From NCBI GenBank assembly GCA_019240755.1, contig JAFAXS010000030.1, positions 1 through 56,776 of the forward strand: a stretch of 56,776 nucleotides of DNA. The letters are read 5' to 3'. A program made the translations under genes and the position numbers. This DNA comes from Vulcanimicrobiota bacterium (GTDB lineage: Bacteria > Vulcanimicrobiota > Vulcanimicrobiia > Vulcanimicrobiales > Vulcanimicrobiaceae). Position 1 is the first letter of the stretch. Each line of letters opens with the position of its first letter. The notes under the pieces were generated by a model, which had not been told where the DNA came from, ran no database searches, and was given only the letters and a program-made list of their open reading frames with translations. Below, in pieces: positions 1,288-3,975 of the stretch.

Positions 1288-2241
1288 CTACCGGGTCGCT
1301 TCGATCGGCAACACGAGCGTCGATATGCGCTCCGACTTGCGCACGGCGTCGATCTTGTAGGAACGGCGCAGATCGATGCTGGTCAAGATGCGGTGCAGCG
1401 TGTCCACGTTGTAGAGGCGTTCGTTTTCAAATGCAATCAGGACGTCGCCCTCGCGCAGGCGCGCGGTATCGGCGGGGCTTCCCGACTCGACGGAGATCGT
1501 CATGATGGCGCGCGGATCGTCCAATCCAAGGCGACGCACCGCTGGCTTGGGCAGCACGATGTCCTGTCCGGCGATGCCAAGATATCCGCGGCGCACCTTG
1601 CCGTATCGAATGAGTAATCCGGCAATGCGCTTGGCCGTGTTGATCGCGATCGCGAAGCACAGACCCTGACCGGGAAGGATCGCCGTATTGACCCCGACGA
1701 CGTCGCCGCCCGCGTCCACGAGCGGTCCTCCGGAGTTGCCGGGATTCAGTGCAGCGTCGGTTTGGATGATGTTGTCCATCAGACGCCCGGATTGCGAGCG
1801 CAGGGAGCGTCCGAGCGCGCTAACCACACCGGCAGTCACGGTGTACGCGAGACCAAAGGGATTGCCGACCGCGACGACGAGCTCGCCCGGTTGTAACGAC
1901 GCCGAGTCGCCGAGCGAGGCGGCGATGAGGCCCGGCGCGCTGACGCGCAGGACGGCCAGATCCGAGTGGGGGTCGTCCCCAACAACGCTCGCCGATAACT
2001 CTCGTCCGTCCAACAACGCGACGCTGACGTTACGCGATTCCGCAACGACGTGGCTGTTCGTCAGCACGAAACCGTCCGGCGTGAAGACAAAGCCGCTGCC
2101 GCTGCCGGCGCGCCCTCCGGTGCGTGCTTCTATGCTGACGACGGAGGGGCTAACGCGTTCCGCCGCCGTCGTCACCGCTTGCGAATAGGGATCCATCGCG
2201 CGTCGCTGCGCGAGCGGTTGCAACGTGAGGGCCATGCTCAT
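1288..2241 (-). CDS. HtrA/DegP-like S1C serine protease with PDZ domain
   Basis: Trypsin-like protease of about 317 aa followed by one PDZ domain. The catalytic triad is visible: His64 in TNSHVV, Asp94 in HSDLAVL and Ser170 in NPGNSGGP. The PDZ domain fills residues 219-317. This is a short HtrA with no obvious signal peptide or membrane anchor from the chosen start. ATG 2241, ATG 2235 and ATG 2196 are all possible starts and none has a strong Shine-Dalgarno site. The frame stays open upstream to 2739, but that part runs antisense through the tRNA-Leu and its repeats and should not be annotated as protein. Family role: envelope protein quality control. Confidence 0.85.
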
Positions 2242-2314
2242 CCCAAACCGCGGCCTCGCGGCGAAGTTTCGTGACAGGGCCGGTGCACGGAGTCCCGAAG
2301 CGTTCCGGCTTCCT

Positions 2315-2398
2315 GCCCAGATGGCGGAATTGGTAGACGCGCTGGTTTCAGGTACCAGTGGTGGCAACACCGTGGGGGTTCGAGTCCCTTTCTGGGCA
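2315..2398 (+). tRNA. tRNA-Leu (anticodon CAG)
   Basis: Cloverleaf read by eye. The acceptor stem GCCCAGA pairs with TCTGGGC and is followed by discriminator A at 2398. The anticodon stem CTGGT/ACCAG encloses loop TTCAGGT, giving anticodon CAG (reads CUG). There is a long class II variable arm around 2360-2373, and the T arm contains GTTCGAGTC. CCA is not encoded. The last 36 nt of this gene are duplicated twice downstream. Confidence 0.95.
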
Positions 2399-2653
2399 GG
2401 TAACGCTACGGTGTTGCCACCACAGCGGAGCACGCAGTGCGAAGCGGTACTCAAACATTCGGGGCCCCCGCCGCGATAGCGGTGGGGAATGGCAACACCA
2501 TGGGGGTTCGAGTCCCTTTCTGGGCAGGTAACGCTACGGTGTTGCCACCGCAGCGGAGCACGCGGTGCGAAGCGGTACTCAAACATTCGGGGCCCCCGCC
2601 GCGATAGCGGTGGGGAATAGCAACACGGTGGGGTTCGAGTCCCTTTCTGGGCA
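2363..2653 (+). repeat. 128-bp tandem repeat carrying the tRNA-Leu 3' end
   Basis: The unit is the last 36 nt of tRNA-Leu (from the variable arm to the discriminator) plus 92 bp of spacer. Copy 1 is 2363-2490 and copy 2 is 2491-2618. A third, partial copy (2619-2653) holds only the tRNA part with one base deleted. Spacers 1 and 2 differ at two positions. The spacer holds a stem-loop CCCCGCCGC-GATA-GCGGTGGGG. A 14-nt segment of the tRNA variable arm (2360-2373) has a perfect inverted copy at 2408-2421. The extra tRNA 3' ends lack a 5' half, so they are fragments rather than tRNAs. Confidence 0.9.
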
Positions 2654-2672
2654 GTTCGAGCGCTCGTCACCT

Positions 2673-2705
2673 TTGTAGGGAAAGCGCTTTCTGCCGCACT
2701 ATACT
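2673..2705 (+). promoter_or_regulatory. possible promoter with 12-bp palindrome
   Basis: A -10-like TATACT (2700-2705) lies just before the GloVer gene, with TTGTAG at 2673-2678 as a poorly spaced -35 (21 bp). Between them sits a perfect palindrome GAAAGCGCTTTC (2680-2691), which could be an operator. Weak evidence from consensus matching only. Confidence 0.3.
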
Positions 2706-2715
2706 CTGCCGCGCC

Positions 2716-3975
2716 GTGGTAGTGCTTTTGAAGATTCATCGCTTTGTGCGCGATCGTCGCGCCGCGCTGTTCGTTACGGCGGCGTGTTGTCTTGCTGCGT
2801 GTTCGCCGAGCGCCGGCTCGTCAGCGGTGCCCGCCGGCGTGCCGGCAGCGGACGTAGCGAGCGCTCTCAAGGGTTACGCGAAGCTCTACGCGTTTGCCGG
2901 TTCGCCGTCGGGTTCGCAGCCAACGGGATTGACCGTCGCGGGAAAGGCACTCTACGGGACCACGCTGATGGGCGGCAAGCACAATTTCGGAACGGTCTTC
3001 GCGCGTTATCGCTCCGGTAAGGTTCGAATCCTGTGGAGCTTTCGCGGCGGAATCGACGGCGCGCAACCGCAGGGCACGCTCGTACTCGTCGGCAATGCCT
3101 TCTATGGAACGACCGAGTACGGCGGAGTGTTCGGTAACGGGACGGTCTTTGCGATAACGCCCGGCGGCACGGAACGCGTGATCTACGCGTTCAAGGGTGG
3201 CGCGGACGGCGCGGCGCCGGTCCTTCTCGGAATGGTCGCCTCGAAGTCGGCGCTGATCGGCACGACCAGCGCCGGAGGCGACGTGAAGTGCAGCGTCGAG
3301 AACAGCGTCGGCTGCGGAACGATCTTTAGTGTCACCACTTCGGGGAAAGAGCGCGTGCTGTATCGCTTCAAAGGCAAATCCGACGGAGCGTTGCCGTCCG
3401 GAAGCCTCGTACTGAGCGGTAAGGTGCTCTACGGCACCACGAACTTCGGCGGAGTTGCCAATAACGGAACCGTGTATGCGTTCACCGGCAAGGGCGGCGA
3501 GCGCGTAATTTACGCATTCAAGGGCTATCCCGACGGAGCGGTCCCGTTCGGCGGCATTACGCAGCTGGGCGGCTACCTCTACGGCACGACCGGTTTCGGA
3601 GGAGCGTCCAACTATTCGGGTACGGTTTATAGGATTGATCCTTCCGGCCGCGAGCACGTGCTCTACAATTTTCGGGGCGCTCCCGACGGAGCGGTTCCCT
3701 ACGGTACGCTGATTGTCGATAAGGGGCTGCTCTATGGAACGACCGCATACGGTGGAAACTCTACGCGACCGTGCGTCGGCGGCGGCGTCGTGGGATGCGG
3801 AACGATCTACGCGGTCGGCACGTTGGGGAAGGAGCGCATCCTCTATCGCTTTGGCGGAAACCTCGATGGGGCGAACCCCTGGACGGGGCTCGTCGCGAGC
3901 GACGGCGCCTTCTTTGGAACGACAGTGTTGGGTGGTCGCTCCAAAGCCGGCACTATCTTCGCGATCGCGCCATGA
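2716..3975 (+). CDS. GloVer-type tandem-repeat lipoprotein
   Basis: A 419-aa protein with an N-terminal export signal ending in a lipobox (CCLAAC, Cys near residue 29). Seven copies of a roughly 55-aa repeat follow, each with a (Y/F/I)GTTxxGG core and a 'GT(V/I)(F/Y)' strand, alternating with 'RxxYxFxGxxDGAxP' segments. This matches the 'choice-of-anchor tandem repeat GloVer-containing' family, probably a beta-propeller-like surface protein. The biochemical role is unknown. The start is GTG at 2716; GTG 2722 and GTG 2746 are alternatives. The stop overlaps the phosphoesterase start by 4 nt (ATGA), so the two are translationally coupled. Confidence 0.8.

What the first reader, a model, noticed from the sequence alone, without database searches (positions are those of the whole stretch)
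2315..2653. tRNA-Leu 3' end copied in a 128-bp tandem array
The last 36 nt of the tRNA recur at exact 128-bp steps, with spacers nearly identical. tRNA 3' ends are the classic attachment sites of integrative elements, so this may be a trace of repeated site-specific recombination or slippage, or an array that makes 3' tRNA fragments. The variable-arm segment can also pair with the spacer (perfect 14-nt inverted repeat), which could disturb tRNA folding of long transcripts.
Basis: partly seen in the sequence, partly recalled or inferred. Interest (0 to 1): 0.62.

Follow-up and report, generated by a model that had tools for sequence, protein, structure and literature searches.

The report
Gene-restoring hairpin elements behind tRNA genes
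The repeated tRNA end is the footprint of a tiny non-coding hairpin element, confined to one bacterial phylum, that sits at one fixed spot inside particular genes, leaves the gene whole, and pushes the gene's old end downstream.

Summary
The array is real. The tRNA-Leu(CAG) 3' end recurs at +128 and +255 bp, the spacers are 96.7% identical, and the inverted repeat is 16 nt. Each spacer holds one copy of a hairpin-rich, non-coding element of about 66 nt. A covariance model finds this core in 27 of 60 related genomes, all in two families of one order of Eremiobacterota.

At tRNA-Leu(CAG/GAG), Ser, Gln, Arg, Ala, fliG and other genes the copies share one layout: intact gene, linker (sometimes with a terminator), often a' (antisense copy of the insertion site), core, b (second copy of the gene's 3' end). 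The site is fixed per gene across genera (Leu: between nt 49 and 50), and b starts 6-9 nt inside a. In same-genus comparisons b joins the native downstream flank. So b is the displaced old end, and the unit supplies or duplicates a working 3' end.

Units are near-identical within an array but 72-78% identical between genomes, so copy number grew by unequal exchange. No IS200/RAYT, reverse transcriptase or IS110 helper tracks the family, and no large island occupies the site. How the element spreads is unknown.

The parts
2314..2399 (+). tRNA-Leu(CAG), intact, identical over nt 2-86 to element-free relatives
2400..2407 (+). linker 1 (no terminator here; in three relatives this part holds an intrinsic-terminator-like hairpin)
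2408..2423 (+). a' of unit 1: 16-nt perfect antisense copy of tRNA nt 45-60, spanning the insertion site
2424..2489 (+). core of element 1: small hairpin + TCAAA...GGGGCCCCC-hairpin-GGGGAA
   Evidence: covariance model R1, 66.5 bits
2490..2527 (+). b of unit 1: second copy of tRNA 3' end (from tRNA nt 49-50), 1 mismatch in 38
2528..2535 (+). linker 2
2536..2551 (+). a' of unit 2 (one mismatch to the tRNA: CCGC for CCAC)
2552..2617 (+). core of element 2
   Evidence: covariance model R1, 64.0 bits
2618..2654 (+). last b: most diverged copy of the tRNA 3' end (one deletion, several changes); read as the displaced original 3' end

Best explanation
Two tandem copies of a short, non-coding, hairpin-rich interspersed element, of a family confined to one order of Eremiobacterota, sit inside the tRNA-Leu(CAG) gene at one fixed position (between nt 49 and 50). 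The inserted unit consists of a tRNA 3' end, a linker, a' (antisense of the insertion site) and the core. It leaves the tRNA whole because it supplies or duplicates the 3' part; the original 3' part (b) is pushed downstream and decays. The same layout recurs at other tRNA genes and at protein-gene 3' ends. The array grew from one unit to two by unequal exchange or slippage between the direct repeats. Shown: the layout, the fixed sites, b joining native flank in same-genus comparisons, target-faithful core lineages, and homogenised arrays. Inferred: that the unit moves as a mobile element. Unknown: the enzyme and the joining chemistry.
For: The core is found in 27/60 relatives, only in families f1/f2, and by pattern in 11 records, ten named Eremiobacterota and one an unnamed bacterial MAG. 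Its main hairpin covaries (score 0.51 against 0.13 shuffled; 92% of cells paired). Direct copies of the upstream gene 3' end score up to 94 and inverted copies up to 32, against shuffled maxima of about 11-15. In tRNA coordinates, a'/b starts are Leu 44/50, Ser 51/59 and Gln 15/21-24, the same across several genomes and genera. Same-genus occupied/empty pairs: tRNA-Ala in G097 vs G090, where native terminator and rnpB follow b and the unit carries another terminator; fliG in G026 vs G082 and G090 vs G097/G073, where b runs into the native fliG-fliH spacing while the upstream copy differs only at synonymous sites. 26/131 copies lie up to 220 nt behind a same-strand tRNA, against 0.2% expected. 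Units are 96.7-100% identical within arrays, 72-78% between genomes. Cores group by target (77%) rather than by genome (70%).
Against: No helper enzyme was found, and movement was not observed. a' is absent at the Lys, Arg and Ala sites and at the f2 genomes' Ser site. A long target-site duplication (16-53 nt) is formally equivalent for most tRNA cases; only fliG and the CCA differences speak against it. Cores clustering by target also fits old vertical inheritance with repeated loss. Draft MAGs limit synteny.
Confidence: 0.68

Rival explanations
1. Remnants of ordinary tyrosine-integrase islands: the unit is the fused ends of an island whose interior was deleted, so the tRNA end repeats are old attL/attR sites.
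For: Regenerated target plus displaced fragment is the hallmark of tDNA islands (PMC4383910). Insertion is site-specific and the target 3' end is restored.
Against: One conserved core of about 66 nt recurs at many unrelated targets including protein genes. No larger version was seen, and no displaced Leu(CAG) end exists elsewhere in 60 genomes. No integrase among the 10 window proteins tested. Elements also sit inside an RNase P RNA loop.
Confidence: 0.13
2. A transposition with unusually long target-site duplications (16-53 nt) directly behind gene ends, by an unknown or lost transposase.
For: Perfect 23-nt duplication at tRNA-Lys reaching past the tRNA end. Left boundaries fall 0-8 nt past tRNA ends.
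Against: In fliG the two gene ends differ at six synonymous sites or in the last codons, and both code L-V-stop. Some units carry their own terminators. It does not explain a'.
Confidence: 0.12
3. Local template switching or slippage at hairpins makes the inverted and direct copies without any mobile element.
For: Inverted and direct copies of flank also occur inside one hairpin (G007, L118). Arrays clearly expand and contract.
Against: The same core sequence, found at unrelated genes in many genomes, cannot arise locally.
Confidence: 0.05
4. A functional RNA array, as proposed for the E. coli tyrT repeats (rtT RNA), making regulatory RNAs or 3' tRNA fragments.
For: Closest known look-alike; stable folds; conserved hairpin with covariation.
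Against: Patchy presence, decaying last copies, protein-gene versions, no RtT (RF00391) hit even at E 5.
Confidence: 0.04

Closest known systems
tDNA-targeted genomic islands (Islander; tyrosine integrases)
   Same: Site-specific insertion in a tRNA or gene 3' part, regenerated target, displaced 3' fragment as direct repeat.
   Different: Unit of about 90-170 bp, no coding capacity, one conserved hairpin core at many unrelated targets, antisense copy of the site.
Rickettsia palindromic elements (from own knowledge)
   Same: Clade-specific palindromic elements of about 100 nt, tolerated in protein and RNA genes.
   Different: As I recall they sit in frame inside genes and do not restore a gene 3' end or carry a target antisense segment.
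REP/BIME elements mobilised by RAYT (IS200-like)
   Same: Short interspersed hairpins behind genes, sometimes in tandem.
   Different: No Y1 transposase in any of 41 genomes of the two families that bear the element.
E. coli tyrT 178-bp repeats / rtT RNA (from own knowledge)
   Same: tRNA gene followed by tandem repeats, each with a copy of the tRNA 3' end.
   Different: No sequence or structure match to RF00391; here the spacer is an interspersed element found at many genes.

Membership tests
tDNA-targeted genomic islands | regenerated target gene plus displaced 3' fragment | tested here: met
tDNA-targeted genomic islands | element encodes a tyrosine integrase | tested here: not met
   unit of about 128 bp has no coding capacity; no integrase among 10 neighbouring window proteins
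REP/RAYT elements | resident Y1 (RAYT) transposase | tested here: not met
   0/41 f1+f2 genomes, while 10/14 element-free f3 genomes have one
REP/RAYT elements | GTAG-type tetranucleotide before the palindrome | not tested
   not scanned
Retroelement / SINE-like | resident reverse transcriptase | tested here: not met
   RVT_1 in only 5/41 f1+f2 genomes, none in the window's genome
IS110 / bridge RNA elements | IS110 transposase present with the elements | tested here: not met
   10/41 f1+f2 genomes, absent from element-rich G037-G040, G020, G026, G000
rtT RNA (tyrT repeats) | match to Rfam RF00391 | tested here: not met
   no hit at E up to 5
rtT RNA (tyrT repeats) | tandem repeats carrying the tRNA 3' end behind a tRNA gene | tested here: met
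Rickettsia palindromic elements | palindromic element found inside protein and RNA genes | tested here: inconclusive
   copies inside RNase P RNA and inside 3' parts of genes; no sequence comparison made

The most novel reading that the evidence does not exclude
The antisense segment a' spans the insertion point at a fixed offset at every a'-bearing target, so it may be the aiming device: a minimal RNA- or ssDNA-guided homing element of about 100 nt that codes for no protein, inserts into a chosen gene, and brings that gene's 3' end and terminator with it, using a host or still unknown enzyme.
Probability: 0.14. Interest if true: 0.92.

Novelty: new variant of a known kind. Interest (0 to 1): 0.62.

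Why it matters
It gives a concrete, testable family of very small non-coding elements that insert inside essential genes without breaking them. Gene restoration is usually the work of integrase-bearing islands of many kilobases. If the antisense segment directs insertion, this would be one of the smallest guided mobile units known. Even if it does not, occupied and empty sites within one genus allow the mechanism of such insertions and array growth to be worked out, and the repeats may explain contig breaks in these MAGs.

Tried and rejected
Integrase or island using the same 36-nt core: no displaced copies elsewhere in 60 genomes. RAYT, reverse transcriptase and IS110 helpers: absent or not tracking. 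Known RNA families: only tRNA in the array, plus an unrelated c-di-AMP riboswitch near one relative's copy. Viral contigs and plasmids: none. Literature: nothing on such a family in open-access text; tyrT/rtT text not held. The idea that encoded CCA marks copying from mature tRNA was dropped, because CCA lies in the upstream copy at some sites and in b at others. The idea that a' always replaces the free form's left hairpin was dropped, because fliG copies have both.

Full report
OBSERVATION. The window holds one tRNA gene, tRNA-Leu(CAG) at 2314-2399 (Rfam 52.8 bits), and one tandem array, 2362-2654, period 128, 95% matches. The tRNA 3' end recurs at +128 (no mismatch in 26 nt) and +255 (one mismatch in 26 nt), so the second step is 127. 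The two spacers are 96.7% identical. A 16-nt perfect antisense copy of tRNA nt 45-60 lies at 2408-2423.

THE SPACER IS AN INTERSPERSED ELEMENT. The same array with other sequence sits at tRNA-Leu(CAG) of a same-genus genome, G015. Analogous units lie behind tRNA-Leu(GAG) in G004, G013 and, in another genus, G029. There the antisense and direct segments match the GAG tRNA, while the middle part is homologous to that of the window. A pattern for the middle part found it in 9 of 60 relatives with no hit for the reversed control. A covariance model (R1, 70 positions) found it in 27 of 60 relatives, all in families f1 and f2 of one order: 0-7 copies in f1 and 10-31 in f2. A scan of 84,980 species genomes with a stricter pattern gave 11 records, ten named Candidatus Eremiobacterota and one an unnamed bacterial MAG (L139). 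The window itself holds just the two copies. The main hairpin is supported by covariation (0.51 against 0.13 in shuffles; 92% of cells paired). A common free form carries a further left hairpin (GGGGGCCCC...GGGGGG) and the consensus GGAGTGCCTxTTAAAxxxxxGGGGTCCCC-hairpin-GGGGAA.

LAYOUT AT GENES. Across 141 non-redundant copies, many show direct copies (b) of the upstream gene's 3' end after the core, and inverted copies (a') before it, far above shuffled scores. Targets are tRNA-Leu(CAG), Leu(GAG), Ser(CGA), Ser(GGA), Gln, Arg, Lys and Ala. Protein genes are fliG and genes whose proteins end in EFIQLYAKSVKNLDL (gyrB-like, three units at 128-bp steps), VGAKVEIK and RETGKKKR. In tRNA coordinates a' starts at about nt 44 (Leu), 51 (Ser) or 15 (Gln), and b starts 6-9 nt later at 50, 59 or 21-24. 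These positions are the same in different species and genera (in G029 the tRNA-b alignment begins slightly earlier). The site is therefore fixed per gene. 26 of 131 copies lie within 220 nt behind a same-strand tRNA, against 0.2% expected (P about 1e-43; 15 of 105 with the model's seed loci left out).

WHICH 3' END IS NATIVE. In genus g49, G090 has an empty tRNA-Ala(GGC) followed by a terminator and the RNase P RNA gene. In G097 the tRNA is followed by a different terminator, the element, b (from tRNA nt 22), and then the homologue of the native terminator and RNase P RNA gene. In fliG, b of G090 and G026 runs into the native spacing before the next gene, as in empty G097, G073 and G082. The upstream copy codes the same residues with synonymous differences and a TGA stop. 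In genus g10, b of G082 at tRNA-Leu(CAG) carries the encoded CCA that empty G026 also has, whereas the upstream copy carries another 3' flank with a terminator. So b is best read as the displaced original end, and the unit brings or duplicates a working end. In the window the last copy (2618-2654) is the most diverged, as expected for a displaced, useless end.

ARRAY GROWTH. Units are 96.7% identical in the window and 98-100% in G015, but only 72-78% between genomes. That is homogenisation by unequal exchange or slippage between direct repeats. Arrays of 2-3 units also occur at tRNA-Ser, tRNA-Gln and the gyrB-like gene. G039 lacks b at tRNA-Ser(GGA) while its congener G038 has it behind the same linker and element.

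HOW IT MIGHT MOVE. Cores resemble each other more by target (77%) than by genome (70%; 67% when both differ), so lineages are faithful to their target. Resident Y1 transposases are absent from all 41 f1/f2 genomes and present in 10 of 14 f3 genomes that lack the element. Reverse transcriptase is in 5 of 41 and IS110 in 10 of 41 without tracking copy number. No displaced Leu(CAG) end lies elsewhere in the 60 genomes; no copy was found in viral contigs or plasmids. The constant offset between a', which spans the insertion point, and b invites the idea that a' aims the element, but this is inference only.

RNA LEVEL. Free RNA of the tRNA plus a' folds into a long helix that destroys the cloverleaf (-61.8 kcal/mol for 128 nt; the tRNA alone -37.1). 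a' can also pair with b around the core. In the 212-nt transcript the tRNA 5' half pairs with the downstream b. Whether this matters in cells, where the tRNA folds and is processed first, is unknown.

VERDICT. The finding is real and is one member of a lineage-specific family of tiny gene-restoring insertions. I found no description of it in open-access text, which does not exclude one elsewhere. Form and site-specificity resemble tDNA islands (PMC4383910); size and hairpins resemble REP or Rickettsia palindromic elements; among those tested it does not meet all defining features of any.

Noticed in passing
window 1288-2739 (-): The trypsin-like peptidase ORF (HtrA-like) is called through the antisense of the tRNA array, giving PERDSNPHG-type residues; the real start is probably near 2258 or lower, so roughly the first 160 residues look spurious.
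   Followed up: partly
L112 (G007 C41:52552), L247 (G090 C19), L243 near 2003 (G097 C67): Elements of the family sit inside what reads as the RNase P RNA gene (between ACAGAAACATACCGCC and GGGTGAAATCGTGAGGTAAGAG), in tandem or as two inverted copies, as if extending a stem.
   Followed up: partly
L036 659-717 (-) (G017 C34): A solitary degenerate element followed by a tRNA-Leu(CAG) 3' end but no tRNA, just upstream of an alpha/beta-hydrolase-like gene; G017's own tRNA-Leu contig breaks inside a'.
   Followed up: partly
L118 969-1075 (G007 C22): The right hairpin of one element carries an inverted 10-nt and a direct 30-nt copy of its own upstream flank.
   Followed up: no
L182, L184, L099: Another short repeat (TCATCCTGAGCGAAGTCGAAGGA) lies behind tRNA-Leu(GAG) in several genomes, and a related stretch interrupts the displaced tRNA-Gln end in G017.
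   Followed up: no
L049, L050, L058, L131 (G038, G039): In family f2 the same core forms arrays of roughly 80-bp units away from tRNA 3' ends, often at contig ends, with 10-31 copies per genome.
   Followed up: partly
f1/f2 versus f3 genomes: Y1 (IS200/RAYT) transposases are absent from all 41 f1/f2 genomes but present in 10 of 14 f3 genomes.
   Followed up: no
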